A stretch of 40,700 nt of DNA from a virus. The DNA is taken from positions 1-40,700 of the IMG/VR virus record IMGVR_UViG_3300037487_000539. One strand, given 5' to 3'. Made by a program: the position numbers and the translations under genes. Of the stretch, positions 5,727 through 40,342 are shown piece after piece. The notes beneath the pieces were generated by a model. It did not search any database. It was not told where the DNA came from and saw only the letters and a list, made by a program, of their open reading frames with translations. How positions within the stretch are numbered: position 1 is the stretch's first letter; every line of letters starts with the position of its first letter.

Positions 5727-6881
5727 TTAGGTTTTAATGGCTAACGAAGCATAAAATCCTCCCGACACCGCAGACCACGTTGTCAATCCGCCGACTTGCT
5801 TGGGTGAGGAGTAGGAAGTCGTATTGCCGAGGCCAAGCTGACCTCTATTGTTATAACCCCACGCCCACAAAGCGCCGTTTGTAGTAGTGGCTAAAGAATG
5901 TGCGAGGCCGGAATTGGACGCTGCCGCCGTGGACCAATTTGTCAATGCGCCGACTTGCACAGGCGAAGATCGGGCAGTTGTATTTCCAAGGCCAAGCTGA
6001 CCTCTATTGTTATAACCCCAAGACCAGAGTGTACCATCTGTTTTAACGGCTAACGCAAAATTACCTGTTCCCGAAGACGCTTTAGACCATGTTGTCAGTG
6101 CGCCGACTTGTTTGGGTGAGGAGTAGGCGGTCAAATTACCGAGGCCTAGAACGCCGTTGGTGTTAGCCCCCCACGACCACAACGTGCCGTCTGTTTTAAC
6201 AGCCATCGTGCTGTTAGGTCCACCCGACACCGTAGCCCACGTTGTCAATGCACCGACTTGCATGGGCGAGGAGTAAGAGAAGGGGCCGTTAAGACCAAGC
6301 TGTCCGCTACCGTTCTCCCCCCACGCCCACAACGTGCCGTTTGTTTTGATGGCTAACGAGAAATTTTGGCCTGCCGACACCGTAGCCCACGCTGTCAATG
6401 CACCGACTTGTTTGGGTGACGAATAATTGGTTATGTTGCCAAGGCCAAGTTGGCCGGAGGCGTTACGCCCCCACGACCAAAGCGTGCCATCGGTTTTAAC
6501 GGCTAACGAATGTACATCAGCACCACCTCCCGCCGACACTTTAGACCAAGTTGTTAATGCGCCAATTTGTTTGGGTGACGAATAATTAACCGTGTTTCCC
6601 TGACCAAGTCTGCCTTGATAACCCCTTCCCCACGACCACATTGTGCCGTCTGTCTTGACGGCTAAAGCAAGAGAATTTCCGCCCGACACCGTAGCCCACG
6701 TTGTCAATGCACCGACTTGTTTGGGTGACGAATAATTGGTTATGTTGCCAAGGCCAAGTTGGCCAAAACCATTGTATCCCCACGACCACAAACCACCGGG
6801 ACCGGGAACAAAAGGACCTGCCGCACCAAACAGCCCAAAGCCTCTGGCAGACGCTGCGCCTCTGGTGAAAATCGTGGGCAT
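5727..6881 (-). CDS. RCC1-repeat beta-propeller protein, copy 1
   Basis: A 384-residue protein made of seven RCC1-type repeats of about 50 residues, each with the phrase LWSWG-x5-GQLGLGN, then YSSPKQVGALTTW, and ending in LAVKTDGT. Seven repeats are the number needed to close a seven-bladed propeller. The first 30 residues (RGAASARGFGLF, then PGPG) are shared with the copy at 6950-8095. There is no signal peptide or enzyme motif. RCC1 propellers bind protein partners or surfaces; in this tail-gene context a virion surface or receptor-binding role is likely but unproven. The start region repeats the sequence GTAAG-ATG-CCC found at the second copy. Confidence 0.85.
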   Translation of the reverse strand: MPTIFTRGAASARGFGLFGAAGPFVPGPGGLWSWGYNGFGQLGLGNITNYSSPKQVGALTTWATVSGGNSLALAVKTDGTMWSWGRGYQGRLGQGNTVNYSSPKQIGALTTWSKVSAGGGADVHSLAVKTDGTLWSWGRNASGQLGLGNITNYSSPKQVGALTAWATVSAGQNFSLAIKTNGTLWAWGENGSGQLGLNGPFSYSSPMQVGALTTWATVSGGPNSTMAVKTDGTLWSWGANTNGVLGLGNLTAYSSPKQVGALTTWSKASSGTGNFALAVKTDGTLWSWGYNNRGQLGLGNTTARSSPVQVGALTNWSTAAASNSGLAHSLATTTNGALWAWGYNNRGQLGLGNTTSYSSPKQVGGLTTWSAVSGGFYASLAIKT

Positions 6882-6882
6882 C

Positions 6883-6939
6883 TTACGGCACCGCGTCTAG
6901 GTTGCGGTGGGCCGCTGCAGCTTGGGTGGCGGTGATCAT
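6883..6939 (-). pseudogene. Remnant of the 3' end of the chaperone-like gene
   Basis: On the minus strand this short frame encodes 18 residues ending NLDAVP-stop, directly before the start of RCC1 copy 1. The intact chaperone-like gene at 8097-8468 ends DLDAVP-stop at the same distance from the start of RCC1 copy 2, and the bases around the stop (GACGC-G-GT-CCGTAAGATG) match. It is best read as the leftover of a tandem duplication of a chaperone-plus-RCC1 block in which most of one chaperone copy was lost. It might still be translated as a short leader peptide. Confidence 0.6.
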
Positions 6940-6949
6940 GGAGCAGCCC

Positions 6950-8095
6950 TTACGTGTAGATGCCTGCAGCAAAGAAGGAGCCCCCCGACGCCACAGACCA
7001 CGTTGTCAGAGCGCCGACCTGCTTTGGCGAACTATAGCTGGTCAAGTTGCCGAGGCCAAGCTGGCCAGAACCGCCGTTCCCCCACGACCACAATGTGCCA
7101 TCGGTCTTGATAGCTAATCCAAATTTGTAGCCGTCCCCCGCTATCTTAGACCACGTCGTTAGTGCGCCGATCTGCTTGGGTGAGGAGTAGTCGGTCGTGT
7201 TGCCGAGACCAAGCCGACCTAGAGAGCCCTGCCCCCACGCCCACATCGTGCCGTCTGTCTTGATGGCAAACGAGGCGTAGGCGTTTCCTCCCGACACCTT
7301 AGACCACGCTGTCAGTGCACCGACCTGCACGGGCGAGGAGTATGCCGTGGTGTTGCCAAGGCCGCACGAGCCCGAGAAGTTTGCTCCCCACGACCAGAGG
7401 GTGCCGTTGGTCTTGACGGCCAGTGCGTGGAAATTCCCGCCCGACACCGTAGCCCACGCTGTCAGTGCGCCAATCTGTTTGGGTGAAGAGTAGGAGGTTG
7501 TGTTGCCGAGGCCGAGTTTGCCGTAGGCGCCTTGCCCCCACGACCACAGTGTGCCGTCGGTCTTGACGGCTAACACAGCACCACCCATGTCTTCCACCGT
7601 AGCCCAGTTTGTCAGTGCGCCGACTTGCTTGGGTGATGAGTAGGAAGTCGTATTGCCGAGACCGAGTTTTCCGTAGGCATTGCTTCCCCACGACCACAGC
7701 GTGCCATCGGTCTTGATAGCTAACCCAAAATTTGACCCCGCCGTCACCTTAGACCACGCGGTCAGTGCGCCAACCTGCACGGGCGATGAACGGTTGGTGA
7801 CGTCGCCAAGGCCAAGTTGACCAAAAGCGTTATACCCCCACGACCAGAGCGTGCCGTCGGTTTTGACGGCGAGACCCGAAGATGCGCCCGCCGACACCGT
7901 AGCCCACGTCGTCAGCGCGCCAACATGCTTGGGCGAGGAGTACTGAGTTGTATTGCCAATACCAAGGTTGCCGCTGGCGTTGTTCCCCCACGACCACAGA
8001 CCGGGTCCGGGGACGGGAGGAGGCCCAGCAGCAGCGGCACGGAACAGCCCAAAGCCTCTGGCCGACGCTACGCCCCGTCTGCTGAGCGCGGGCAT
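6950..8095 (-). CDS. RCC1-repeat beta-propeller protein, copy 2
   Basis: A 381-residue protein with seven RCC1 repeats (LWSWGNNASGNLGIGN, LWSWGYNAFGQLGLGD, and so on). N-terminal sequence RGVASARGFGLFRAA and a Pro/Gly linker precede the first blade and are shared with copy 1. Blades differ mainly in the loop after WSWG and in the residues before LAVKTDGT, as expected if loop surfaces are under diversifying pressure while the propeller core is kept. The gene begins one base after the stop of the chaperone-like gene. It ends at 6950, and the sequence after it differs from the 3' flank shared by copies 1 and 3. Confidence 0.85.
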   Translation of the reverse strand: MPALSRRGVASARGFGLFRAAAAGPPPVPGPGLWSWGNNASGNLGIGNTTQYSSPKHVGALTTWATVSAGASSGLAVKTDGTLWSWGYNAFGQLGLGDVTNRSSPVQVGALTAWSKVTAGSNFGLAIKTDGTLWSWGSNAYGKLGLGNTTSYSSPKQVGALTNWATVEDMGGAVLAVKTDGTLWSWGQGAYGKLGLGNTTSYSSPKQIGALTAWATVSGGNFHALAVKTNGTLWSWGANFSGSCGLGNTTAYSSPVQVGALTAWSKVSGGNAYASFAIKTDGTMWAWGQGSLGRLGLGNTTDYSSPKQIGALTTWSKIAGDGYKFGLAIKTDGTLWSWGNGGSGQLGLGNLTSYSSPKQVGALTTWSVASGGSFFAAGIYT

Positions 8096-8096
8096 C

Positions 8097-8468
8097 TTAC
8101 GGGACTGCGTCTAGGTCGTCGTGCGTCTGTGCGGCTTCGATGGCGGCGACGCGGGTAAGATACAGTGCCTGTGCCGCGACCGGATCGAAGTCCGCCTCGT
8201 TGGTGCCGGGTTCGCCCTTCTTAGACAAGAACTCGGCATGAGCGAGCATACTGACTTTGCGGTCTTCAACCGAGACGGCCTCGACCGGCCAGACAATCTC
8301 AACGGGCGTCTTCGTCAGGTCAAAATAGTGTTGCCCATAGACCTCACGATAGGCCGTAACGGTAGGGCGGACCTCAATGGCGTCGCGCCAACCGTCTTCA
8401 CCGGCAGGGGGCGGCGTGTCCCAGCACTGAACGACGACATCGTTAGAAACCTTAACCCACATTGGCAT
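8097..8468 (-). CDS. Tail-fibre assembly chaperone-like protein
   Basis: A 123-residue protein with no sure family match. The C-terminus (ALYLTRVAAIEAAQTHDDLDAVP) has the look of the C-terminal helix of phage tail-fibre assembly chaperones, which commonly end in an AAxTxEELDAI-like phrase and are encoded next to fibre genes. The N-terminal half is rich in Trp, Val and Asp and likely forms strands. It overlaps the upstream sulfotransferase fusion gene by 17 bases; a GAGGAAG site precedes the ATG. Position directly before a propeller gene and the decayed copy before another propeller suggest that it serves the propeller proteins, for instance in folding or attachment. Confidence 0.5.
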   Translation of the reverse strand: MPMWVKVSNDVVVQCWDTPPPAGEDGWRDAIEVRPTVTAYREVYGQHYFDLTKTPVEIVWPVEAVSVEDRKVSMLAHAEFLSKKGEPGTNEADFDPVAAQALYLTRVAAIEAAQTHDDLDAVP

Positions 8469-10221
8469 GGGAAACTTCCTCTTGCTTCAAATCACGACGC
8501 ATAGCTTCGAACGGGGCAATCCAGTCAGCGAAGACCTCCTGCCTATATAGCCGCATTGTATCATAAAATGCAGTCTTGTCTCCCGGCCTTGCGTACAGGT
8601 AGTACGGCATGATCGGCTGGGCGACCCACGTCTCAACGCCCATTGCGGCAGCCAAGTGCGACACCGACGTGCAGGAGGTGATCACCAGATCACAGGAGGC
8701 GACGGCTTCCTGCGTCTTCAGCCAGTCATCCAGCGGCACCTGACGCACCCAGTCGGGGCAGACCTCCATGTCGTTGTCGCGCTGGAGGCACACGAAGTCA
8801 GCGTCCACACCCTTCACGGCGTCAAACATCAGCTCCGGTGGGAAAACGCGGTGCTGCTCATGTTCGAACCTAGGATTACCGGACCAGCGCAGCCCAATCC
8901 GCTTACGAGGTCCGCGCTCGACAAAGGGCTTGGGGATGTAGGCGCTGCCGCAGACGTTTCGGTACTCGTAGCCCAGCGGCACCAAGGCGCTCATCCCCGG
9001 CGTCCAGAAGTCGTGGTAGACCCCGAGAACCGAGTCATGGGTCACGATGGCCGACAAGCCCTTGACCTGATTGAGCATAAACACCAACGCATCCGAGCAG
9101 GCCACAACCACCTTGCAACCCCGTGCCGCGATGTTCTTGGCATAACGAACTTGGTGGATTTGGTCGCCTAGACCGCCTTCGAGGTACAGCAGCACGGTGC
9201 CTTGGGACTTGCCGTCCCACAGCGGCTGAGGCGTGCCGGGGTTCCGATTACCAAATACGCCTTCTTTGCGGCCACGATCCAGCAACGCAAAGCCCTGTTG
9301 CAGCTTGCCCTGCCGCAGCAGATACCAGCCTCGATTATAGGCGGCGCGGTCGTTCTCAGGCTCTTCCGCTGCGAGCTGCTCCGAGAGCTGCCACGCTTCG
9401 GCAAAGTTGCCTACTCTCGACGCTGCGAGTTGTAGGTCGAGGGTGTGTATCTCCGGCTGACCGGGATCAGCGCGCCAGAACGCGGGCTGTGCAAACTGGG
9501 CATAGCGCTTCCCCAGCACGTCGCGGGCGCTCTGGTTATGCTGCCGTTCGAGCTTGGGCTGCACGTCGTGTAGACCCGGCGCGTTCCATAAGGCCGCGTC
9601 GTCTTCCGCAACCGTGCTGCCGTCAATGTTCTCAAAGTTGTAAACAAAGGGCGGCAGGTCCAGAAAGGCGTGAACGCGGTCAAGCTGCGCCTGCGGCTCG
9701 GCCAGCAGGTCTTCGTACTCGACGAACAGGAACGCCTCTGGATACGCCGCATAGCCGTTCTGCAGGCTGACATACGAGCCTTGCAGGTGCTGGATAAAGC
9801 TGCTGTCCACTAGGAACGAGTTCAGGTCTTCTGGCTTGGCGATCCGCGCAAACGAGGCAGCGCAATCCGGCACGTCGCGCACAGTGGCGATGATCTTCAT
9901 GGGACGGCCCAGCACCATCGGCATGGACTGCATGATGTCCGGTCGCGGCCACTCCCGGCTCTTGTCGATGGCGACGGCGGGAGCGTCTTTGTACTCGGCA
10001 TTGATGACGCCGCGCATCACCTCGATCAGCCGCGTGCGCTCTGGGTCACGGATGCTGAGCGTGTGCGCCTTCGCCCAGAGGTTGGCTAAGACATCGAGGA
10101 TATTGACTAACTCGCTGGTGGAACTGACCTTCGCCGCCGGGTTTTGATTGAGAATGGCGGCGAGAAGGGTGGACCCCGAGCGGGGCAATCCAGCGAGAAA
10201 GTGCAGTTCCATGCGGCTCAA
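8452..10221 (-). CDS. Sulfotransferase-TPR-glycosyltransferase fusion protein
   Basis: A 589-residue protein with two enzyme-like halves. Residues 1-200 are a PAPS-dependent sulfotransferase: GLPRSGSTLL (11-20) is the 5'-phosphosulfate loop, TVRDVPDCAASF (113-124) the 3'-phosphate site with Arg115 and Ser123, and VEYEDLLAEP precedes a helix typical of the family. Residues 255-320 resemble tetratricopeptide helices (NRGWYLLRQGKLQQGFALLD). Residues 345-560 resemble a family 9/41-type glycosyltransferase: LEGGLGDQIHQVRYA (347-361), IGLRWSGNP (442-450) and CDLVITSCTSVSHLAAAMG (510-528). It may sulfate and glycosylate a virion protein or host surface glycan. It sits between a fibre fragment and a fibre chaperone-like gene and overlaps both neighbours. 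Confidence 0.8.
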   Translation of the reverse strand: MSRMELHFLAGLPRSGSTLLAAILNQNPAAKVSSTSELVNILDVLANLWAKAHTLSIRDPERTRLIEVMRGVINAEYKDAPAVAIDKSREWPRPDIMQSMPMVLGRPMKIIATVRDVPDCAASFARIAKPEDLNSFLVDSSFIQHLQGSYVSLQNGYAAYPEAFLFVEYEDLLAEPQAQLDRVHAFLDLPPFVYNFENIDGSTVAEDDAALWNAPGLHDVQPKLERQHNQSARDVLGKRYAQFAQPAFWRADPGQPEIHTLDLQLAASRVGNFAEAWQLSEQLAAEEPENDRAAYNRGWYLLRQGKLQQGFALLDRGRKEGVFGNRNPGTPQPLWDGKSQGTVLLYLEGGLGDQIHQVRYAKNIAARGCKVVVACSDALVFMLNQVKGLSAIVTHDSVLGVYHDFWTPGMSALVPLGYEYRNVCGSAYIPKPFVERGPRKRIGLRWSGNPRFEHEQHRVFPPELMFDAVKGVDADFVCLQRDNDMEVCPDWVRQVPLDDWLKTQEAVASCDLVITSCTSVSHLAAAMGVETWVAQPIMPYYLYARPGDKTAFYDTMRLYRQEVFADWIAPFEAMRRDLKQEEVSHANVG

Positions 10222-10673
10222 GCAAACTTTGTCTGCGACGTAAAGACCGTGTACGTCCGATCTGCCGTCTTGGTTACCGTGTATGTGTAAACGTCAATGC
10301 TGCTGGCATTGCCCGCAGCGTAAGCCGTCCCACCTTGGTATTTTGGCGTAACCGTCACGCCGTCAATTTGCAACACGTTGTTGTAGTAGGCCGTCGCGCC
10401 ATTCGTGACCATGTTGGCAATCGTCACGCTCTGGCCGATAGACAGGTACGCATTGAGCGGCATCGCCTTGGAATAGACGATATTCAGGGTCCAGTTGGCT
10501 GTGGCACTGGCTGTTGAGTACACCACCGACTGCGAGTTGACCTCGTAGATGATAGTCCCGGTCGCCGCCACAGTGGTTACCGTGGTCGGCTCGACAGCAT
10601 TTCTTAGCGTAGCCCCAACAAGGCTGGGGCTGGCAATCGTGTGATAATCAAAAGCCGCCGCCGCCGTGGTCAT
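10218..10673 (-). CDS. Small fibre-module protein
   Basis: A 151-residue protein. From about residue 30 it is a stand-alone version of the C-terminal module of the 644-residue fibre: compare ATGTIIYEVNSQSVVYST with ATGTINYDITTQSVLYYT, and GNASSIDVYTYTVTKTADRTYTV with GNASGIDVYTYTVIKTAAATFTV. The module is predicted to be all beta. Its ATG overlaps the stop of the upstream gene (TAATG), and its own stop overlaps the ATG of the sulfotransferase fusion (ATGA). It is probably a virion protein that decorates or caps a fibre. No enzyme motif is present. Confidence 0.65.
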   Translation of the reverse strand: MTTAAAAFDYHTIASPSLVGATLRNAVEPTTVTTVAATGTIIYEVNSQSVVYSTASATANWTLNIVYSKAMPLNAYLSIGQSVTIANMVTNGATAYYNNVLQIDGVTVTPKYQGGTAYAAGNASSIDVYTYTVTKTADRTYTVFTSQTKFA

Positions 10674-11119
10674 TAGTACGCCCCGCCGTAGGCCGTCACT
10701 TGCAGCGCCGTACCAGCCGCCGTGGTCGTAACCGTCGTACTGGCATACAGAGCAAACGCAGCAGGCAGGTTCAGCGGCTGCGGGAACGTGAAGGTCGTTG
10801 TGAACGCAGCGGCTGTCGTGCTGGGCGTCGTGGCAAGCACCGGGATTTCAGCGGTCAGGAACGCCGTCGTGCCGTCCCACAGCCAGATGCCGACTAAAGC
10901 GGCGGCGTTGGCGGTCGAGATGCCAGTGCCGCAGTTGTTGACTTGGATACTGTCGATCCGCAGGCCATTGGTCGAGATTGGCACAAAGGCTGTGATGTTA
11001 GCCCCCGCCAAACTCGCCGTAGCGGTGGGAGCGCGAGTGGTACACGCAGTCTGCGCAGCCAGCGTAAGTGACTTTGCATAAGGCGTCTGCGCAAAGATCG
11101 GGGTGGATGTGACGGCCAT
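10673..11119 (-). CDS. Putative virion protein
   Basis: A 148-residue, Ala/Thr-rich protein beginning MAVTSTPIFAQTPYAKSL. Alternating hydrophobic segments (ITAFVPISTNGLRIDSIQVNN, LVGIWLWDG, AEIPVLATTP, PAAFALYASTTVTT) suggest a beta-sandwich. I do not recognise a named family, though proteins of this type are common in phage tail regions. It is coupled to both neighbours by overlapping stop and start codons, which implies co-production with the fibre genes. Confidence 0.55.
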   Translation of the reverse strand: MAVTSTPIFAQTPYAKSLTLAAQTACTTRAPTATASLAGANITAFVPISTNGLRIDSIQVNNCGTGISTANAAALVGIWLWDGTTAFLTAEIPVLATTPSTTAAAFTTTFTFPQPLNLPAAFALYASTTVTTTAAGTALQVTAYGGAY

Positions 11120-11394
11120 CAGAAGCCTCCAAAGTTGTTAGCTGTGTAGATACTGGCACCAGCAGGTACTGTAGGGATGGCGGCGGGGGTCGTCGAGGCC
11201 CACGTTGTTCCGTTGGACGTTAGCACATTTCCCGAGGTGCTGGGAGCCACCACCTGTAGGGCGCTCGTGCCGTTACCCAACAGGACGTTGTTCGCCGTGA
11301 GGGTTGCCGCGCCCGTGCCGCCATTAGCCACACCCAGAACGCCAGTCGCGCTCGCACCTTCGGCCAGAAAGCTAAGATTGCGGGGTATGCTCAT
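11119..11394 (-). CDS. Short fibre-repeat protein
   Basis: A 91-residue protein (MSIPRNLSFLAEGASATGV...) built almost wholly from one fibre motif: VANGGTGAATLTANNVLLGN, then LQVVAP, then SGNVLTSNGTTW. A diverged copy of the same segment lies in the middle of the 590-residue fibre at 12551-14323 (around 13560-13690), and the two are also related in DNA sequence. It may be an excised fibre segment that now acts as a separate short fibre subunit, or the N-terminal anchor of a fibre formed with the next gene. An AAGGAG site precedes the ATG. The downstream gene overlaps its stop (TGATG). Confidence 0.6.
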   Translation of the reverse strand: MSIPRNLSFLAEGASATGVLGVANGGTGAATLTANNVLLGNGTSALQVVAPSTSGNVLTSNGTTWASTTPAAIPTVPAGASIYTANNFGGF

Positions 11395-11441
11395 GCTGCT
11401 AACTCCTTACCGATAGGTTGTTTTGGGGGTCATGGGGTCAC

Positions 11442-12551
11442 TTAGGTTATGATGGCTAACGTAGCGCCGTTGGATACGGCAGCAACCGTAGACCACGTTG
11501 TTAGTGCGCCAACTTGCACGGGCGAGGATCGGCCGGTTACATCGCCTAGACCAAGCTGACCTTTAGGATTATACCCCCACGCCCACAGTGTGCCGTTGGT
11601 CTTGATAGCAAACGCAAAAGCAGTGGCCCCCGATACCTTAGACCACGTTGTCAAAGCGCCGACCTGCTTGGGCGAGGAGTAGCTGGTCGTGTTGCCGAGG
11701 CCGAGTGCGCCAGCGTAGCCATTCCCCCACGTCCAGAGTGTGCCGTCAGTCTTGGTGGCTACCACGCCTTCTTGCCCCCCTGACACCTTAGACCAAGTTG
11801 TCAGAGCGCCCACCTGCTTTGGCGAGGAGTAGTGGTTTGGGTTACCGAGGCCAAGCTGACCGCTGCTGTTCAGTCCCCACGACCAGAGAGTGCCATCTGT
11901 CTTAATGGCTATCCCGGAATTTTGTGTTGCAGACACCTTAGACCACGTCGTTAGTGCGCCGACTTGCTTGGGTGAAGAGTAGTAGGTCGTGTTGCCAAGG
12001 CCAAGTTGGCCGATACTGTTAGTCCCCCACGACCACAACGTGCCGTCTGTCTTGATAGCCAATGAAAACGAATTTGTTCCCACCGTTTCAGACCACGTTG
12101 TCAGTGCGCCGACTTGCTTGGGCGAGGAGTAGTTGGTTATGTTGCCAAGGCCAAGTTGGCCGGAGGCGTTACCCCCCCACGACCAGAGAGTGCCGTTGGT
12201 TTTAATAGCTAACGCGCCAGCACGGGTTGCACCCGACGCTATTTTAGACCACGTTGTCAAAGCGCCAATTTGCACGGGCGAAGAGCGATCAACGGTGTCG
12301 CCTAGGCCAAGGTTTCCAGAACTGTTAGACCCCCACGACCAGAGCGTGCCGTCGGCCTTAATGGCAAATGAAGAAAGATTACCACCCGCTAGCGTAGCCC
12401 ACGTTGTTAGGGCACCAATTTGTTTAGGTGAGGAGTAATTGGTTGTGTTGCCGAGGCCCAAAGACCCCAGCGCGTTTTGCCCCCACGACCACAAACCAGC
12501 GTTACTGGGACCACCACCCGCACCCAAAAACATCTGTTGAAGCGCAGACAT
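11442..12551 (-). CDS. RCC1-repeat beta-propeller protein, copy 3
   Basis: A 369-residue protein with seven RCC1 repeats (LWSWGQNALGSLGLGN, LWSWGSNSSGNLGLGD, LWTWGNGYAGALGLGN, and so on). I start at ATG 12551 because it overlaps the stop of the upstream fibre gene (TAATG), as elsewhere in this cluster; an in-frame start at 12581 would add ten residues. Its N-terminus (MSALQQMFLGAGGG) differs from copies 1 and 2, but its end and the bases after the stop (TAAGTGACCCC-ATGAC) match those of copy 1. It is one of three candidates for a swappable surface or receptor-binding propeller. Confidence 0.85.
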   Translation of the reverse strand: MSALQQMFLGAGGGPSNAGLWSWGQNALGSLGLGNTTNYSSPKQIGALTTWATLAGGNLSSFAIKADGTLWSWGSNSSGNLGLGDTVDRSSPVQIGALTTWSKIASGATRAGALAIKTNGTLWSWGGNASGQLGLGNITNYSSPKQVGALTTWSETVGTNSFSLAIKTDGTLWSWGTNSIGQLGLGNTTYYSSPKQVGALTTWSKVSATQNSGIAIKTDGTLWSWGLNSSGQLGLGNPNHYSSPKQVGALTTWSKVSGGQEGVVATKTDGTLWTWGNGYAGALGLGNTTSYSSPKQVGALTTWSKVSGATAFAFAIKTNGTLWAWGYNPKGQLGLGDVTGRSSPVQVGALTTWSTVAAVSNGATLAIIT

Positions 12552-31535: not shown

Positions 31536-33038
31536 ATGGCATTTACCCCCACCGCCCAGCAGCAGGCGTTCCTCGCCGCCCTGACCGACACCACCGAGAA
31601 CCTCGCCCTTGAGGCCCGCGCCGGGTGCGGCAAGACCTCGACCATCATGCTCGGGGTTGACGCCCTGCGCGCAGCGAACGAGCGCACGCGCATATTGGTG
31701 TGCGCCTTCAATGCCGCCATCGTGAAGGAGATCGACGGCAAGCTACGGGACGCCGGGCACGGCTTTCCTGCCGTGCAGGCCAAGACCGCCCACGGGCTGG
31801 GCACTAGCCTCCTGAAAGACGCCTACGGGTTCGACACGAAGCGCGACCTCAATGCCCACAAAGTGCGCGACTTGATACAGGCCGCAGCGGGCTCGAACGC
31901 CCTCTACGGGGCCTACACCCAGCAGATCACCAAGTTGGTGCAGATGGGCAAGCAGGCCGCGATAGGGGTGTTCGGACGGGTGGACGACCACACGATCTGG
32001 TACGGGCTGGCGGCGCACCACAACATCGAACTGGACGACAACCACGCCCTGATCGTCGCCGCCGCGCAGGACGTTTACACGCGCAGCAGTGAAGACCTCT
32101 CGACCTTCGACTTCGACGACATGATCCTGATCCCTCTGCTGCGCCGCCTGACGACCAAGTGGCCCGCCGACGTGGTGTTCGTGGACGAGGCGCAAGACCT
32201 GTCCCCCGCCCGGCAGGCGCTCATCGGCAAGTTTGTCAAACCCCGCTACGGGCGGCTGGTCATCGTCGGCGACCCCGCACAGGCCATCTACGGCTTCGCG
32301 GGGGCTGACGCACAGTCGCTCTCGAACCTGATCCGTGAGTATGACGCGACCGTGCTGCCGCTCTCGGTGACGTGGCGCTGCCCCAAGGCCGTCGTGCGGG
32401 CCGCGCAGGCCTATGTGCCCGACATCACCGCTGCCGACAGCGCGCCCGAGGGCAGTGTCTCGGAGATGATGCTGCTGCCGGAGACGCTGGAGCCGGGCCG
32501 CGATGCGGTCCTCTGCCGCAACACCGCGCCCCTGATCTCGACCGCCTACGCCCTGATCCGGGGCGGCACGCCCGCCCGCGTCGAGGGCCGGGACATCGGC
32601 GAGGGTCTGGCGGCACTGGCGCGCCGCTGGAAGGTGCGGACCTGCGCCGAGTTGATGGCGAAGCTGGCGGTCCACGAGACACGCGAACTGGCCAAGCTGG
32701 ACGGCACGCCCGACGAGCTGGAGCAGGCCGAAAAGCTGCGCGACCGCCTCGACACCCTGCGCGAGATCATCCTCGCCTGTCAGTCGCGCGACGAGCATCT
32801 GGTGACCGACGTGGTGTCGGCCATCGCCGCCCTGTTCGGTGACGACGTGAAGGGGGCCGTGGTGCTGGCGACCTACCACAAGTCCAAGGGCCGGGAGTGG
32901 CGGCGGGTGTTCTTGTTCGAACACTTCACCCGCTGCCCCTCTAAGGCCGCGCGCCAGCCGTGGCAGTTGGAGCAAGAGGCCAACCTCGCCTACGTCGCCA
33001 TCACCCGCGCACAAGAGGAGCTTGTGTACATCGGCTAA
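31536..33038 (+). CDS. UvrD/Rep-type superfamily 1 DNA helicase
   Basis: A 500-residue protein with the helicase motifs in order: ARAGCGKT (27-34, Walker A), FVDEAQDL (215-222, Walker B), GDPAQAIYGFAGA (245-257, motif III), LSVTWRCP (motif IV), TYHKSKGREWRRVFL (motif V) and YVAITRAQEEL (motif VI, with the arginine finger). It lacks the large 1B/2B insertions of full-length UvrD, which makes it shorter than cellular UvrD. It should unwind DNA 3' to 5' during phage replication or recombination. Start: ATG at 31536 with the variant leader GGAGACCAACGATC. It follows a hairpin element. Confidence 0.9.
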   Translation: MAFTPTAQQQAFLAALTDTTENLALEARAGCGKTSTIMLGVDALRAANERTRILVCAFNAAIVKEIDGKLRDAGHGFPAVQAKTAHGLGTSLLKDAYGFDTKRDLNAHKVRDLIQAAAGSNALYGAYTQQITKLVQMGKQAAIGVFGRVDDHTIWYGLAAHHNIELDDNHALIVAAAQDVYTRSSEDLSTFDFDDMILIPLLRRLTTKWPADVVFVDEAQDLSPARQALIGKFVKPRYGRLVIVGDPAQAIYGFAGADAQSLSNLIREYDATVLPLSVTWRCPKAVVRAAQAYVPDITAADSAPEGSVSEMMLLPETLEPGRDAVLCRNTAPLISTAYALIRGGTPARVEGRDIGEGLAALARRWKVRTCAELMAKLAVHETRELAKLDGTPDELEQAEKLRDRLDTLREIILACQSRDEHLVTDVVSAIAALFGDDVKGAVVLATYHKSKGREWRRVFLFEHFTRCPSKAARQPWQLEQEANLAYVAITRAQEELVYIG

Positions 33039-34525: not shown

Positions 34526-34549
34526 CAACCTGCACCGACCTAGTACGGT
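34522..34549 (+). promoter_or_regulatory. Possible promoter before the pentapeptide gene
   Basis: A perfect -35, TTGACA (34522-34527), is followed after 16 bases by TACGGT (34544-34549), a weak -10. A similar pair with an 18-base spacer (TTGACT, TACCGT) precedes the regulator at 37297. Confidence 0.3.
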
Positions 34550-34574
34550 GCGCCTCAAAGGAGACCTGAAGACC

Positions 34575-34985
34575 ATGATTGAGATCAAGCACGAAGAAAC
34601 CGGCGCGGTCCTGCATACCGTTGACGCTGCCGACCTGCGTGGGGCCGACCTGAGCATGGCCGACCTGAGCATGGCCGACCTGTGCTGGGCCGACCTACGC
34701 GGGGCCGACCTGAGCAGGGCCGACCTGAGCGGGGCCAACCTGCGCGGGGCCGACCTGCGCTGGGCCGACCTGAGCGGGGCCGACCTGAGCATGGCCGACC
34801 TGCGCGCTGCCAACCTGCGCGGGGCCGACCTGCTCAGGTCGGCTGAAAATACCGCCCACGCCGATAGCTGCTGGTCTTGGGGGCCGACGCACTACGAGTG
34901 CGCCCTGCGCGAGATCGCTAGGCAACGAGAGGTCATTGAGACGTGGCGCGCGGCCCACATCGAAGCGACGGGGGCAGACCAATGA
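34575..34985 (+). CDS. Pentapeptide-repeat protein
   Basis: A 136-residue protein. From about residue 18 to 85 it has some 14 pentapeptides of the form [20 protein letters not shown], the signature of a right-handed square beta-helix (as in Qnr and MfpA). At the DNA level this is a run of 15- and 30-bp repeats with GGGGCCGACCTG. The N-terminus ([19 protein letters not shown]) is a short cap and the C-terminus an added helix ([19 protein letters not shown]). Such proteins may mimic DNA and bind gyrase, but many have other roles. Start: ATG 34575 by the leader. A short gene overlaps its stop. Confidence 0.85.
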
Positions 34986-35166: not shown

Positions 35167-35372
35167 TGAACCCGGTTGATCTTCGCCGCTTTCGCGACCC
35201 AACCCCCGCCATGCTTAAAGCCGCATGGTCCGCCATGCACGCCACACCGTCGGGCGAGTGGAAGCGCCTGAAGGCATCCGGCGCATCTCCGCGCGAACTG
35301 TTCGACGCCAAGATGCTTCCGCGTTGGCAGGCGATGGTGGATCATATCTTGAAGTCAGAGGATAAGCCGTGA
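35166..35372 (+). CDS. Small basic protein of unknown function
   Basis: A 68-residue protein: MNPVDLRRFRDPTPAMLKAAWSAMHATPSGEWKRLKASG... It is basic and helical and resembles the short proteins encoded near phage replication genes, with no family I can name. Start overlap (TGATG) with the previous frame and GTG/TGA overlap with the next give tight coupling. Confidence 0.5.
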   Translation: MNPVDLRRFRDPTPAMLKAAWSAMHATPSGEWKRLKASGASPRELFDAKMLPRWQAMVDHILKSEDKP

Positions 35373-35623
35373 GCGCGCCCACCATGGCCTCCATCGTGGC
35401 CGACGTGGCCGCAGCGCACCGTCTGCCGGTCTCCGTCCTGATGGGCCGCAGCCGGTACAAGCAAGACGTGCGGGCTCGGCAGGAGGCCATCTGGCGCTGC
35501 CGGGAGGTCCGGCAGGACGACGGCAGGCACCGCTACGCCCTGCAACAGATCGGCCAGTTTTTTAAGCGCCACCACACCACCATCATCCATGCGTGTAAAC
35601 GCCACCTAGAGAGGACGACCTGA
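35369..35623 (+). CDS. DnaA domain IV-like DNA-binding protein
   Basis: An 84-residue protein starting at GTG 35369 (overlapping the previous stop). It matches the C-terminal DNA-binding domain of DnaA: IVADVAAAHRLPVSVLMGRSRY (8-29) with the SR...Q basic loop, RARQEAIWRCREV (35-47), and the signature YALQQIGQFFKRHHTTIIHA (56-75), which corresponds to the xxIGxxFxxRxHTTVxHA helix of DnaA. The AAA+ part is missing, so it cannot by itself melt an origin. Such stand-alone proteins may bind DnaA boxes in the phage or host origin and steer replication. The gene precedes the Tas-like gene by one base. Confidence 0.75.
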   Translation: MSAPTMASIVADVAAAHRLPVSVLMGRSRYKQDVRARQEAIWRCREVRQDDGRHRYALQQIGQFFKRHHTTIIHACKRHLERTT

Positions 35624-35624
35624 C

Positions 35625-36473
35625 ATGACTGACGCCATTAACACCCACGACGTTGACGCCCCGAGCCTCGGTGTAATCCAAGAGGCCATTCGTAAACTCA
35701 CCAAGGACGAAAAGTTCGCCGGGATTGTTCTCGGCAAGGACGAGGCACGCTTCCTCGTGGACGCCTACTATCAACTGCAGGACAACCGCATCCGCAACGA
35801 CGCGCAGGTCCGCTCAATGGCCAAGGACGGCGAGCCCCACGCGGTCATTCAATGGTTGGCCGACATGAACCGCACCCTAGAGGACCAGATCAAGGCGGCG
35901 CTGGATGTCTACAGTGCCAACGATCCGGTAGGTAAATGGTTGCGGGCGCAGGTCGGTATCGGTCCTGTCATCGCGGCGGGTCTGCTGGCCCACCTCGACA
36001 TCACCAAGGCCGAGACGGCGGGCGCGTTCTGGAGCTTCGCTGGGATGGAGCCTAGCAAGGTCTGGAACAAGGGCGAGAAGCGCCCGTGGAACGCGGCGCT
36101 GAAGGTGCTGTGCTGGAAGGCAGGCGAGAGCTTCGTCAAGGTCTCTGGTAACGAGCGGGCGACCTACAGCAAGTTTTATAAGGCGCGTAAGCTGCAGGAG
36201 ATCGAGAAGAACGAGCGCGGCGACTTTGCAGCGCAGGCGGCGGACATCCTGACCAAGAAGAAGATCGGCAAGGATACGGACGCCTACAAGGCGTACATCC
36301 AAGGCAAGCTGCCACCGGCCCACATCCATGCACGGGCGACCCGGTACGCTGTTAAGCTGCTGTTGGCCCACCTGCACGAGGTCATGTACGTCCAACACCA
36401 CGGACGCCAGCCGCCTCTGCCCTACGCGATTGGCATTCTAGGCCACGCGCATAAGATCAGCCCGATAAGTTAG
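35625..36473 (+). CDS. Tas-like protein with a Nop/IS110-type core (TasA candidate)
   Basis: A 282-residue protein. Residues 40-100 are helical (EARFLVDAYYQLQDNRIRND). Residues 104-120 (KWLRAQVGIGPVIAAGL) and the following segment (FWSFAGMEPSKVW, KRPWNAALKVLCWK) match the helix-hairpin-helix core shared by IS110-type transposases (the Transposase_20 domain) and the Nop domain of box C/D RNPs. It lacks the IS110 RuvC-like DEDD domain and any HNH. Residues 232-252 (AHIHARATRYAVKLLLAHLHE) are a further conserved helix. Directly downstream is a 36-bp dual-repeat array. This protein-plus-array pair is the TIGR-Tas layout; a Tas with no nuclease is TasA-type, expected to bind DNA with its RNA without cutting. 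The start is ATG 35625 with leader GAGGACGACCTGAC. Confidence 0.75.
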   Translation: MTDAINTHDVDAPSLGVIQEAIRKLTKDEKFAGIVLGKDEARFLVDAYYQLQDNRIRNDAQVRSMAKDGEPHAVIQWLADMNRTLEDQIKAALDVYSANDPVGKWLRAQVGIGPVIAAGLLAHLDITKAETAGAFWSFAGMEPSKVWNKGEKRPWNAALKVLCWKAGESFVKVSGNERATYSKFYKARKLQEIEKNERGDFAAQAADILTKKKIGKDTDAYKAYIQGKLPPAHIHARATRYAVKLLLAHLHEVMYVQHHGRQPPLPYAIGILGHAHKISPIS

Positions 36474-36477
36474 GGCT

Positions 36478-37233
36478 GAGCGAGCCAAAGTCCGAGACAG
36501 AACCCTCACCATGGAGCGAGCCATGATCGCCGACAGAACCAGAGCTGAAGAGCGAGCCAAAATGCCTGACAGAACCGAGACGTGCGAGCGAGCCAAGGCG
36601 TCGGACAGAACCAAGTCATGAGAGCGAGCCATGCACTCTGACAGAACCAAGCTGCTGGAGCGAGCCATTGGCGACGACAGAACCATCACGTTCGAGCGAG
36701 CCAGAATACGAGACAGCACTATAGAGGGAGAGCGAGCCAATACCGCTGACAGAACCACCTTTTGCGAGCGAGCCAGGAGGCTTGACAGAACCATCACGAC
36801 GGAGCGAGCCATGAAGTTTGACAGAACCATGTTCGACGAGCGAGCCAATTCCGCTGACAGAACCACTTTTTGGGAGCGAGCCATGACGGATGACAGAACC
36901 CTTTGATCGGAGCGAGCCATTACTGGCGACAGCACCAGAATTCAAGAGCGAGCCATACGAGGTGACAGAACCAGCCGAGCGGAGCGAGCCATGATGGGAG
37001 ACAGAACCCTTTTATCGGAGCGAGCCACCAAGTGAGACAGAACCAAAACTGGGGAGCGAGCCATGTTCACGGACAGAACCACCGCCGCTGAGCGAGCCAC
37101 GATTTCGGACAGCACCAACCCCCCTGAGCGAGCCACGACCTTCGACAGAACCACAGTTCCAGAGCGAGCCACTACCCCCGACAGAACCAGCTTTCGCGAG
37201 CGAGCCAAAGATCGAGACTGAACCCTGCGACAA
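36478..37233 (+). repeat. TIGR-like dual-repeat guide array (21 units of 36 bp)
   Basis: Twenty-one perfect-length 36-bp units start 4 bases after the stop of the Tas-like gene. Each reads GAGCGAGCC + 9 variable bases + GACAGAACC + 9 variable bases. For unit n the first variable segment starts at 36487+36(n-1), the second at 36505+36(n-1). The first word is intact in all 21 units; the second varies only in unit 7 (GACAGCACT), 13 and 18 (GACAGCACC) and 21 (GACTGAACC). A decayed GAGCGCGGG follows. The first base after GAGCGAGCC is always A; after GACAGAACC it is A in 16 units. No reading frame is open through the array. It should yield 36-nt dual-guide RNAs with two 9-nt spacers each. Confidence 0.85.
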
Positions 37234-37237
37234 GAGC

Positions 37238-37276
37238 GCGGGGGCGTTGACTTCACCCCCGCCGTTGCACTACCGT
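37238..37276 (+). promoter_or_regulatory. Hairpin and possible promoter after the array
   Basis: GCGGGGG (37238-37244) and CCCCCGC (37256-37262) form a 7-bp hairpin around a loop that contains TTGACT (37247-37252); 18 bases later is TACCGT (37271-37276). It could end the array transcript or act as a promoter/operator for the regulator at 37297; the -10 is weak. Confidence 0.3.
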
Positions 37277-37296: not shown

Positions 37297-37518
37297 ATGA
37301 CCAAATCAACCGGCATTGACCTCGCCATTAAGCAGGCGGGGTCCATTTCGGCCCTCGCCCGTAAACTAAATATCAGCCATCAGGTTGTGAACCGCTGGCA
37401 CAAGCGCGGCTATGTCCCCGCCAAGCGGGCGCTGGAGATTGAGCTGCACTACGGCGTCCCCGCCCGTGATCTGGTCGAGCCCTCCCTGCTGCACATCGCC
37501 TCGCTCCTGACCTCGTGA
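37297..37518 (+). CDS. YdaS/Cro-like DNA-binding regulator
   Basis: A 73-residue helix-turn-helix protein: IDLAIKQAGSISALARKLNIS (8-28) and HQVVNRWHKRGYVPAKRALE (29-48) form the HTH and wing-like segment of the YdaS/Cro antitoxin-like family, followed by IELHYGVPARDLVEP. Typical length is 65-75. It should bind DNA as a dimer and repress or switch an early promoter, perhaps its own (TTGACT ... TACCGT) or that of the array. AGGAG lies upstream of the ATG; it lacks the common leader. The primase-helicase gene follows after eight bases. Confidence 0.75.
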   Translation: MTKSTGIDLAIKQAGSISALARKLNISHQVVNRWHKRGYVPAKRALEIELHYGVPARDLVEPSLLHIASLLTS

Positions 37519-37526
37519 CTTAGGTC

Positions 37527-39608
37527 ATGGCCAGCAACGTGTCCCCTATCTCGCCCCACGTCCGCCGCGTCGAGGCCCCCTCAGAGCTGCGGGAGTTACA
37601 GGGCTGGCTATGCTGGCGCAATGAACACCACCCCGGCGAGGCCAAGGCCCGCAAGGTGCCGTACTACGTCACCGGCCAACGTCGCTATGGCAAGCAGGGT
37701 GCGCCCGAGGACCGGGCCAAGATGACCACCTTCGCGGCAGCGCGAGACGCGGCAGCGCGCCTCGGCTTTGACGGCGTTGGGCTGGCGCTCATGCCCGAAT
37801 GGGGCATCACCGCGCTGGACTTTGACCACTGCGTAGACAGTGACGGCAGACTACCTCCCGAGGTCGAGGACATCGTCAGTCGGACCTATGCCGAGTACAG
37901 CCCCAGCGGCAACGGGGTGCGGGCCTTCGTTCGCGGCGTGCTGGGCAACCACAAGAGCCACAAGGACGCCAACAACGACTACGGTTTTGAATTGTTCAGT
38001 AGCTCAGGTTTTGTGACCTTTACGGGCAACATCCTGCCCTACACCGAGGCTCTGGGGCTGGAGGACTTCGTCGCGCCGGTTGACGAGCGCGTCATCAACC
38101 TCTCGCAGCAGCGCTTTGGGCCGACGCACGCCGCGCCCACCGGTTCCGACGACTTCCTTGACAACTACGAGCCGCCCCTCGGCCTGCGGGCGGCTGACAT
38201 CGAGGCCCTGCTCTCGGACCTCGACCCCGGCATGGGCCGCGAGGGCTGGATACAGGTCGGCATGGCCCTCCACCACGAGCTGGGCTCCGAGGGTCTGGAC
38301 GTGTGGGACGACTGGTCGAGCGGCGGGGCGCAGTACCCCGGCTCCGACGGCCTGCGCGCGCAGTGGGACAGCTTCGACCGGCGAGACCCGAACGGGCGTC
38401 GCATCACGATGCGGACGGTCAAGAAGATGAGCGCCGACGTCAGAGCGCAACGGGGGGAACAGCCAAGGTCTTTTGACCAGATCAACCGCGCCGCCGAAGA
38501 AGCGCGGGCCGAGACGGCGGGTCGAGAACACGACCCCGACCGCTTCGCCTCATCCACTGACTGGGCGGGCCGCTTCCACGTCTACTCCGGTGACGAGTTC
38601 TCGCAGCGCCCGCCGGTCGAGTTTATGATCAAGGGCGTCCTGCCCGAGCAGGCCGACTTGATCGTCGTCTACGGGGCCAGCGGCTCCGGCAAATCGTTCA
38701 TGGTGCTGGACATGGCCATGGCCCTCGTTCGAGACGTGCCGTGGCGCGAACGGAAGGTCCGACGTAAAAGGGTGCTTTACATAGCCGCCGAGGGCGGCGG
38801 CGGCGTCGCCCAGCGGCTGCGGGCCTACAGTCAGCACCACGGGGTCAGTCTTAAGGACATTCCGCTGGGGGTCATCCACGACGCGCCCAACCTCATGGTC
38901 GAGGACGACGTGACGGCGCTCGTGCAGGCGATCATTGACGCAGGCGGCGCGGACCTGATCATCATCGACACGCTGGCGCAGGCCACGCCGGGGGCCAACG
39001 AGAACAGCGGCGAGGACATGGGGCTGGCGCTGAAGCACACCCGCGCCATCCGCAAGGCCACCGGCGCGGTGATCATGCTGGTCGCCCATACGGGCAAGGA
39101 CCAAGCCAAGGGCATACGCGGCTGGTCTGGTTTAAACGCTGCGTCGGACACGTCCATTGAGGTCTTCCGGCCCGAGGACAGTGACGCGCGCCTGCTGAAG
39201 GTGACCAAGCAGAAGGACGGTCGCGACGACCTGTCGTGGGGCTTCAAGCTGGAGAGCGTGCTTATCGGTCTGGACAGTGACGGCGAGGAGATCACGTCGC
39301 TGGTCGTGACGGAGGCCGAGGTGCCGGTGGCCGCGCCGAAGGAGCCCAAGGGCGTGCGCAAGATGGGCGGCTGGGAGCGGGCCGTCATGGACTACATCCA
39401 GACGCTGGGTGTTGGGTTCACGGGCGCGCCGCTGCAGGAACTGATCGACGGCGTCGCGGCAGGCGTGCCGGGGCCAGAGGGCAGCGAGCGCGACTTGCGC
39501 AAGCAGAACACCCTGCGCGCCATCAAGTCCCTGACCAAGGGCCTGAACGCGCCCCTGTTCCTTGAGAACGGCTACGTTTCTTTTGGAGAGCTGCTCTTTC
39601 CCGATTGA
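37527..39608 (+). CDS. Primase-helicase fusion protein
   Basis: A 693-residue protein. Residues 20-180 form a primase-polymerase-like N-terminus with GWLCWRNE, ITALDFDHC (94-102, Asp98/Asp100), and YSPSGNGVRAFVRG (124-137), as in archaeo-eukaryotic type phage primases. Residues 222-300 match a PriCT-2 domain (DIEALLSDLDPGMGREGWIQ, VGMALHHELG, LRAQWDSFDRR). Residues 365-560 are a RecA-like helicase: VYGASGSGKS (381-390) is Walker A and LIIIDTLAQ (477-485) Walker B, then VIMLVAHTGKDQAKGIRG. The C-terminal 130 residues appear to be a winged-helix partner domain. It likely starts and drives phage DNA replication. No polymerase is seen in the window. Confidence 0.85.
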   Translation: MASNVSPISPHVRRVEAPSELRELQGWLCWRNEHHPGEAKARKVPYYVTGQRRYGKQGAPEDRAKMTTFAAARDAAARLGFDGVGLALMPEWGITALDFDHCVDSDGRLPPEVEDIVSRTYAEYSPSGNGVRAFVRGVLGNHKSHKDANNDYGFELFSSSGFVTFTGNILPYTEALGLEDFVAPVDERVINLSQQRFGPTHAAPTGSDDFLDNYEPPLGLRAADIEALLSDLDPGMGREGWIQVGMALHHELGSEGLDVWDDWSSGGAQYPGSDGLRAQWDSFDRRDPNGRRITMRTVKKMSADVRAQRGEQPRSFDQINRAAEEARAETAGREHDPDRFASSTDWAGRFHVYSGDEFSQRPPVEFMIKGVLPEQADLIVVYGASGSGKSFMVLDMAMALVRDVPWRERKVRRKRVLYIAAEGGGGVAQRLRAYSQHHGVSLKDIPLGVIHDAPNLMVEDDVTALVQAIIDAGGADLIIIDTLAQATPGANENSGEDMGLALKHTRAIRKATGAVIMLVAHTGKDQAKGIRGWSGLNAASDTSIEVFRPEDSDARLLKVTKQKDGRDDLSWGFKLESVLIGLDSDGEEITSLVVTEAEVPVAAPKEPKGVRKMGGWERAVMDYIQTLGVGFTGAPLQELIDGVAAGVPGPEGSERDLRKQNTLRAIKSLTKGLNAPLFLENGYVSFGELLFPD

Positions 39609-39934: not shown

Positions 39935-40342
39935 ATGTATGAAATTAAGATTGCCGCCGCGAGCGTTAGCGAGTTGCGAGGCCGACTTCTGGCTCTTGTC
40001 GCCCAGATGACATTGGAGGCCAGCGTTGCGCCTAAGCCCGTGGCCGTTGCGCCTAAGCCCGTGGCCGTTGCGCCTAAGCCCGTGGCCGTTGCGCCTAAGC
40101 CCGTGGCCGTTGTGCCTGAGCCGGTGGTGGTTGTGCCTGAGCCGGTCGCCGAGGAGCCGGTCGCCGAGGAGATCACCTACGAGCAGGTGCGCACCGCGAT
40201 CCTGCAAGTGTCGGTCGGCGTGGGCCGCGAGGCCGTCGGCACCATCCTGCAGCACTTTGGCGCGACCCGGAACGCGCAGGAGATCGATCCCTCCCGCTAT
40301 CCCGAAGTGCTGGCGATGGCCAAGAAGACGCTGGAGGGTTGA
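39935..40342 (+). CDS. VAPKPVA-repeat protein
   Basis: A 135-residue protein. Residues 31-58 are four perfect heptapeptides VAPKPVA encoded by 21-bp tandem repeats (about 40025-40108), followed by two VVPEPVV-like units, a rigid Pro-rich linker. The C-terminal 55 residues (ITYEQVRTAILQVSVGVGRE, then AVGTILQHFGATRNAQEIDP and YPEVLAMAKKTLEG) form a small helical domain of a type often found near phage recombination genes; I cannot assign a function. The N-terminus (MYEIKIAAASVSELRGRLLALV) is helical. It could tether two partner proteins. Confidence 0.6.
   Translation: MYEIKIAAASVSELRGRLLALVAQMTLEASVAPKPVAVAPKPVAVAPKPVAVAPKPVAVVPEPVVVVPEPVAEEPVAEEITYEQVRTAILQVSVGVGREAVGTILQHFGATRNAQEIDPSRYPEVLAMAKKTLEG

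What the first reader, a model, noticed from the sequence alone, without database searches (positions are those of the whole stretch)
35625..37233. A TIGR-Tas system in a phage early region
Seen: 21 units of exactly 36 bp, with two alternating 9-nt words and two 9-nt variable segments, immediately after a 282-residue protein with an IS110/Nop-type core. Known: published TIGR-Tas systems (2025) have tandem arrays processed into 36-nt RNAs with two spacers, and Tas proteins with a Nop domain related to box C/D RNPs and IS110 transposases. Inferred: this is one of them, cotranscribed with its protein. The words, spacer count and phage context are specific to this locus.
Basis: partly seen in the sequence, partly recalled or inferred. 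Interest (0 to 1): 0.97.

Follow-up and report, generated by a model that had tools for sequence, protein, structure and literature searches.

The report
A phage TIGR-TasA guide-RNA array system
This uncultivated phage carries a genuine member of the RNA-guided DNA-binding system TIGR-Tas, published in 2025, in its nuclease-free form (TasA) with 21 two-part guides; it is a new member of a known family, and comparing it with over a hundred related arrays suggests that the guides turn over by recombination inside the repeats rather than by CRISPR-like acquisition at one end.

Summary
Twenty-one units of exactly 36 bp (36478-37233) start 4 nt after the stop codon of a 282-aa gene (35625-36473). 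The protein passes NCBI's curated TIGR-Tas model (NF052498, 214.9 bits against a cut-off of 100). Its AlphaFold model matches TasH and TasR structures first and IS110 recombinases only weakly. It has no N-terminal nuclease, so it is a TasA. The alternating words are best read as a 10-nt edge (GAGCGAGCCA), 8-nt spacer, 10-nt loop (GACAGAACCA), 8-nt spacer. Nearly all relatives examined carry such an array next to the gene. Edge positions 3-8 and 4-7 covary across arrays and the loop does not, as expected for a closing stem of the processed 36-nt RNA.

Beyond membership: guides turn over far faster than the gene, shared guides lie anywhere in the array (no end polarity), and chimeric units show recombination inside the repeats. 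A hint that near-duplicate guides differ at codon third positions is weak once the discovery pairs are removed. No target was found in the phage, in about 2.5 Mb of relatives, in limited host searches, or in four IMG/VR scans.

The parts
35625..36473 (+). tasA: 282-aa solo-Nop TIGR-associated protein
   Evidence: NF052498 214.9 bits (cut-off 100); phrog_4285 1.2e-54; PDB TasH 7e-10 and TasR 2.5e-9; AF2 pLDDT 88, Foldseek top 11 hits all TasH/TasR
36478..37233 (+). TIGR dual-repeat array, 21 units of 36 bp: edge GAGCGAGCCA, 8-nt spacer A, loop GACAGAACCA, 8-nt spacer B
   Evidence: exact spacing; repeat variants; register of 10+8+10+8 from relatives
37234..37238 (+). 3'-truncated edge repeat GAGCG that closes the array
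   Evidence: sequence; published arrays end in a truncated edge
37237..37263 (+). GC-rich hairpin after the array (GCGGGGG...CCCCCGC), possible terminator but without a T-run
   Evidence: fold (z = -1.4, not significant); no terminator-like site called on this strand
36730..36765 (+). unit 8, near-duplicate of unit 11 (36838-36873): target strings ATACCGCTGCAAAAGG and ATTCCGCTCCAAAAAG
36838..36873 (+). unit 11, near-duplicate of unit 8
36874..36909 (+). unit 12, near-duplicate of unit 15 (36982-37017): TGACGGATCGATCAAA and TGATGGGACGATAAAA; both carry the rare loop ending CCC
36982..37017 (+). unit 15, near-duplicate of unit 12
37198..37233 (+). unit 21: spacer A AAGATCGA is identical to spacer A of unit 15 of relative L007 while spacer B is unrelated (chimeric unit)

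Best explanation
This is a TIGR-TasA operon in an uncultivated tailed phage. Inferred from published relatives: tasA and the array are transcribed together; the transcript is cut in the middle of each edge repeat into 36-nt tigRNAs; a TasA dimer holds one tigRNA through its edge and loop motifs; spacer A pairs with one strand and spacer B with the other strand of a contiguous site reading A + reverse complement of B (16 bp here). Because TasA has no nuclease, the complex most likely acts as a programmable, strongly bending DNA-binding roadblock that represses transcription or replication of a competing element or of a host gene. Shown here: membership, anatomy, a covarying closing stem in the edge, and the way guides change: fast turnover, no end polarity, shared blocks largely in the same order, and chimeric units whose breakpoints lie in the 10-nt repeats. 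So guides appear to be reassorted between arrays by recombination at the repeats and then altered by substitution, with no sign of an acquisition machine. The identity of the targets is not known.
For: Curated family match; TasR/TasH sequence and fold matches; solo Nop fold with no N-terminal nuclease; 21 regular units. Of the 80 IMG/VR relatives fetched, all but a handful (e.g. L019, L024, L027) show a detectable 36-nt-type array beside tas, and most GTDB-contig relatives too. Edge 3-8 pairs in 85 of 91 guide-sharing groups (65 GC, 11 AT, 5 TA, 4 GT) and 4-7 in 89 of 91 (65 CG, 17 TA, 5 AT, 2 TG), whereas loop 4-7 is AA in 74. Caveat: edge and loop were told apart partly by these pairs, but the edge so chosen also agrees with the truncated repeat at the array ends. 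Guide sharing falls from 100% at identical tasA to about half at 98-99.9% nucleotide identity and under 1% at 80-85%. Shared units are even along the array (0.30, 0.30, 0.28, 0.31, 0.29 by fifths), with 26 chimeric units against about 0.4 expected from unrelated arrays. TasA binding of 36-nt RNA and the two-strand rule are published (PMC12045711).
Against: No RNA, binding or phenotype data for this locus. No target found: none in the phage itself, no excess over shuffled partners in about 2.5 Mb of relatives and of the two cultured phages, no host match for the two Halomonas guides tried, no common gene among exact IMG/VR hits. DNA binding by a nuclease-free TasA has not been shown in the paper read. 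The recombination reading rests on 39 related array pairs that are not all independent.
Confidence: 0.85

Rival explanations
1. The guides are aimed at protein-coding genes of rival phages or hosts, and near-duplicate guides follow silent (codon third position) changes in the target gene.
For: In the window both near-duplicate pairs differ in codon-like steps when written as A + rc(B): ATACCGCTGCAAAAGG/ATTCCGCTCCAAAAAG (I-P-L-Q-K, three silent changes) and TGACGGATCGATCAAA/TGATGGGACGATAAAA. Over 64 within-array pairs with 2-5 differences the same-phase excess has p = 0.004 and there are fewer amino-acid changes than random (p = 0.003). 472 pairs from unrelated arrays show no excess. The arrays themselves are not open reading frames.
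Against: Without the discovery pairs (window and L086) the excess is not significant at 3 or 4 differences (p = 0.28, 0.15) and remains only when 5-difference pairs are included (p = 0.006), and some of those are chance pairs. Guides shared between related arrays show no phase bias (p = 0.5-0.9). Composition tests are at most weak. No target gene found.
Confidence: 0.25
2. A CRISPR-like adaptive memory that takes in new spacers at one end of the array.
For: Spacers are almost all different between related phages.
Against: Shared guides are spread evenly over the array, both ends included, and replacements occur internally. Chimeric units point to exchange at repeats. The genes examined around tasA in this phage are replication and regulatory genes, with no adaptation gene among them.
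Confidence: 0.05
3. The protein is an IS110-type transposase or its remnant and the repeats are unrelated to it.
For: Sub-threshold Pfam Transposase_20 match over 36 residues and the PHROG label 'transposase'.
Against: IS110 model 21.5 bits against a cut-off of 140 while the TIGR-Tas model scores 214.9; IS621/ISCro4 rank far below TasH/TasR; no DEDD domain match; the array accompanies nearly all relatives.
Confidence: 0.01
4. The guides steer the phage's own gene expression or genome packaging (self-targets).
For: The locus sits among early/replication genes with a Cro/YdaS-like repressor next to it.
Against: No guide matches the rest of the 40.7-kb record better than shuffled A/B partners for gaps 0-2. 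The record may be incomplete.
Confidence: 0.08

Closest known systems
TIGR-TasA with dual-repeat arrays (e.g. FpTIGR of Flavonifractor plautii; Faure et al. 2025, PMC12045711)
   Same: Solo Nop protein, array of alternating edge and loop repeats with two spacers per unit, unit length 36, array beside the gene, closing truncated edge, phage location
   Different: 21 units here against the usual 5-15 quoted; repeats begin GA rather than the UG of TasR; 8+8-nt spacers (FpTIGR 9+9); two covarying positions in the edge rather than the one extra pair described for TasR
SpTasH of Salicola phage CGphi29 (HQ634153, PDB 21kl/9w04)
   Same: Homologous Nop core (27% identity); array with edge AAGCGAGCCA and 8+8 spacers
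   Different: TasH carries an N-terminal HNH nuclease, absent here
TaTasR (PDB 9mty)
   Same: Homologous Nop core and fold, edge/loop logic
   Different: TasR carries an N-terminal RuvC nuclease and uses UG/CCA motifs with 9+9 spacers
IS110-family RNA-guided recombinases (IS621, ISCro4)
   Same: Distant Nop-like RNA-binding core
   Different: No DEDD domain, no bridge RNA, long guide array instead; curated model not met

Membership tests
TIGR-Tas (TasA type) | Tas protein recognised by the curated family model | tested here: met
   NF052498 TIGR_Tas_endo 214.9 bits, cut-off 100
TIGR-Tas (TasA type) | Nop-domain fold related to TasR/TasH | tested here: met
   AF2 pLDDT 88.2, pTM 0.83; Foldseek top 11 are TasH/TasR
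TIGR-Tas (TasA type) | Adjacent dual-repeat array, two distinct 8-12-nt repeats with 8-12-nt spacers | tested here: met
   21 units of 10+8+10+8 nt, 4 nt after the stop codon
TIGR-Tas (TasA type) | Shared motifs in edge and loop; edge holds a covarying pair | tested here: met
   Both repeats begin GA and end CCA; edge 3-8 and 4-7 covary over 91 guide-sharing groups, loop 4-7 does not pair
TIGR-Tas (TasA type) | No HNH or RuvC nuclease domain (TasA rather than TasH/TasR) | tested here: met
   282 aa; no such domain in Pfam; residues 84-199 align to TasR 152-270, so the room for an N-terminal nuclease is missing; model is helical from residue 15
TIGR-Tas (TasA type) | Truncated edge and terminator at the end of the array | tested here: inconclusive
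   Truncated edge present; GC hairpin without T-run
TIGR-Tas (TasA type) | Processing into 36-nt tigRNAs bound by the protein | not testable with these tools
   Needs small-RNA sequencing
TIGR-Tas (TasA type) | tigRNA-directed binding of both DNA strands | not testable with these tools
   Needs binding assay; no natural target found
IS110 transposase | Curated IS110 model and DEDD N-terminal domain | tested here: not met
   21.5 bits against a cut-off of 140; no DEDD domain match
CRISPR array | Single repeat of about 25-36 nt, cas genes, end-polarised acquisition | tested here: not met
   Two alternating 10-nt repeats; no polarity in relatives; no Rfam CRISPR repeat match at 35-38 kb

The most novel reading that the evidence does not exclude
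TIGR-TasA guide repertoires of phages form a shared, reassorting pool: arrays exchange whole and half guides by recombination at the 10-nt edge and loop repeats, duplicate units, and let the copies drift to follow silent variation in conserved genes of rivals or hosts. That would be a heritable guide-learning route without any acquisition machinery.
Probability: 0.2. Interest if true: 0.8.

Novelty: new member of a known kind. Interest (0 to 1): 0.45.

Why it matters
The discovery paper calls the origin and expansion of TIGR arrays and the targets of TasA open questions. This locus and its relatives supply many natural arrays in which guide change can be measured: fast, without polarity, with chimeric units at the repeats. 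If it holds up, it separates TIGR arrays from CRISPR arrays in how they learn, and the two near-duplicate guide pairs in this array give concrete target strings to look for.

Tried and rejected
Self-targets in the window: none above shuffled partners. Targets in relatives and the two cultured phages, about 2.5 Mb, both strand layouts, gaps 0-4: no excess. Four exact IMG/VR scans: window guides 8/11, 48 hits without a common gene; the guide most retained in the L031-L036 group, 1 hit; two guides retained between diverged arrays, 38 and 11 hits. In the third scan both alleles hit one T4-like (family B) DNA polymerase gene at the same codon in homologues of 45% identity, but other hit clusters are unrelated genes and I judge this most likely chance; kept as a lead. 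Host search: one Halomonas prophage guide against its own host with up to 2 mismatches and another against 90 genomes of the genus: none. Palindromic targets: A and B no more alike than shuffled. Array as an ORF: 4-9 in-frame stops per frame in the window. Plasmids: no relative. PADLOC: no match.

Full report
Observation. Searches confirm the array: GAGCGAGCC occurs 21 times at exact 36-bp spacing from 36478 to 37198, each followed 18 bp later by GACAGAACC or a close variant. The base after the edge word is A in 21 of 21 units and after the loop word A in 16 of 21. In relatives that A is part of the repeat, so I read edge GAGCGAGCCA, spacer A 8 nt, loop GACAGAACCA, spacer B 8 nt. The array starts 4 nt after the tasA stop codon and ends in a truncated edge (GAGCG, 37234-37238) and a GC hairpin that is not a clear terminator.

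Protein. The 282-aa product of 35625-36473 matches NCBI's TIGR-Tas equivalog model at 214.9 bits (cut-off 100) and IS110 at 21.5 bits (cut-off 140). In PDB sequences it finds TasH (7e-10) and TasR (2.5e-9) directly, and with a 38-sequence profile TasR 1.9e-22, TasH 2.8e-14, IS621 3e-5. The AlphaFold2 model (pLDDT 88.2) has TasH and TasR structures as its 11 best Foldseek matches, then IS621 and ISCro4. It has no nuclease domain: a TasA in the nomenclature of Faure et al. 2025 (PMC12045711).

Context. The record is a 40.7-kb virus record. Structural genes (portal, terminase, head proteins) lie on the minus strand at 18-27 kb. The plus-strand region from about 30 kb holds a UvrD-family helicase (31536-33038), a DnaA-domain-IV-like protein (35369-35623), tasA, the array, a YdaS/Cro-like repressor (37297-37518) and a primase-helicase (37527-39608). 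'Early region' is therefore a fair inference. A portal-region stretch is 74% identical to Caulobacter phages RW and KcrB, a weak host hint.

Relatives. Three close relatives were found with the protein alone, 80 with an alignment, more with a distant one, and 17 in GTDB contigs including one on a 301-kb Halomonas contig and one on a 6.7-Mb Acidobacteriaceae scaffold, presumably prophages. Cultured-phage relatives are Salicola phage CGphi29, the source of SpTasH, and Microcystis phage Mvi-JY20. Nearly all carry a dual-repeat array of period 36 (34, 35 or 38 in a few) beside the gene. Across one locus per guide-sharing group, edge positions 3-8 pair in 85 of 91 (GC, AT, TA, GT) and 4-7 in 89 of 91 (CG, TA, AT, TG); in the loop 4-7 is A-A in 74. 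My parser used these pairs to tell edge from loop, so the percentage is biased upward, but the change of both partners together is not made by that choice. It is what a closing stem between the two ends of a processed tigRNA predicts, and it extends by one pair what the paper reports for TasR.

Guide evolution. 112 non-redundant arrays hold 1534 distinct guides (median 13.5 units, maximum 46; 21 arrays have at least 21 units). Guides shared between two arrays drop from all at identical tasA to 51% at 98-99.9% nucleotide identity, 30% at 95-98%, 14% at 90-95% and 0.6% at 80-85%. The window shares no guide with L007 although tasA is 88% identical at the nucleotide level; one spacer A is shared with an unrelated spacer B. 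Among 39 related pairs, shared guides are even along the array, and 26 distinct chimeric units share one spacer exactly with an unrelated partner, against 2 in a five-fold larger control of unrelated arrays. Several flank shared blocks: L031 unit 20 and L035 unit 35 share only spacer B and the next two units are identical. This places breakpoints in the loop repeat. Within arrays, near-duplicate guides exceed chance: about 25 pairs with 1-4 differences outside L033 (exact copies and overlapping calls left aside) against about 2 expected.

Codon-phase idea. In the window, units 8/11 and 12/15, written as A + rc(B), differ mostly at three-base steps and mostly silently. Over all within-array pairs the same-phase excess is p = 0.004-0.013 and nonsynonymous change is lower than random (p = 0.003 for up to 4 or 5 differences). 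Removing the pairs that suggested the idea leaves p = 0.28, 0.15 and 0.006 for at most 3, 4 and 5 differences. Guides shared between related arrays show nothing. I therefore report it as an unproven lead.

Targets. None found. A 16-mer is short: patterns with one or two two-letter positions give 11-48 exact hits in the viral collection, most of which must be chance, so only several guides hitting one genome would be convincing.

Mechanism. From the published work: 36-nt tigRNAs bound by TasA, TasR and TasH; spacer A on one strand, spacer B on the other; contiguous target; strong DNA bend in TasR. The published 8-nt 3' overhang fits target layout A + rc(B) (my derivation from the text). For a TasA without nuclease I infer a guide-programmed roadblock or repressor; the paper proposes this as a possibility and does not show it.

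Verdict. New member of a known kind, with the population behaviour of its arrays as the interesting part.

Noticed in passing
35369-35623 +: 84-aa protein matching DnaA domain IV (PF08299, 3.2e-13) directly upstream of tasA; a phage-borne DnaA-box reader by similarity.
   Followed up: partly
37297-37518 +: 73-aa YdaS/Cro/CI-like helix-turn-helix protein directly downstream of the array (PF15943 5e-12).
   Followed up: partly
6167-12196: Several 150-bp tandem repeat blocks (TRF) inside minus-strand ORFs; they look like RCC1-type repeats, perhaps tail or adhesion proteins (not tested).
   Followed up: no
34548-34985 +: Pentapeptide-repeat protein (PF00805, 6e-23) from a 15-bp tandem repeat shortly upstream of tasA.
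   Followed up: partly
40024-40151: 21-bp tandem repeat, 6 copies, near the end of the record.
   Followed up: no
L073:13261-13621, L044, L080, L097, L098: Some relatives carry two separate TIGR arrays around one tas gene, or arrays upstream of it.
   Followed up: no
L026, L029, L099 (period 34), L044 (35), L058, L059 (38): Unit length varies; the 34-nt forms L026 and L029 have a shortened loop (GAACATCA) while the edge stays GAGCGAGCCA.
   Followed up: no
L277, L282, L283, L299, L307: Both alleles of a guide of relatives L023/L030 match the same codon of T4-like DNA polymerase genes; probably chance.
   Followed up: partly
PHROGs family phrog_4285: Labelled 'transposase, integration and excision' but its model matches this TasA at 1e-54; probably a mislabelled Tas family.
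   Followed up: partly
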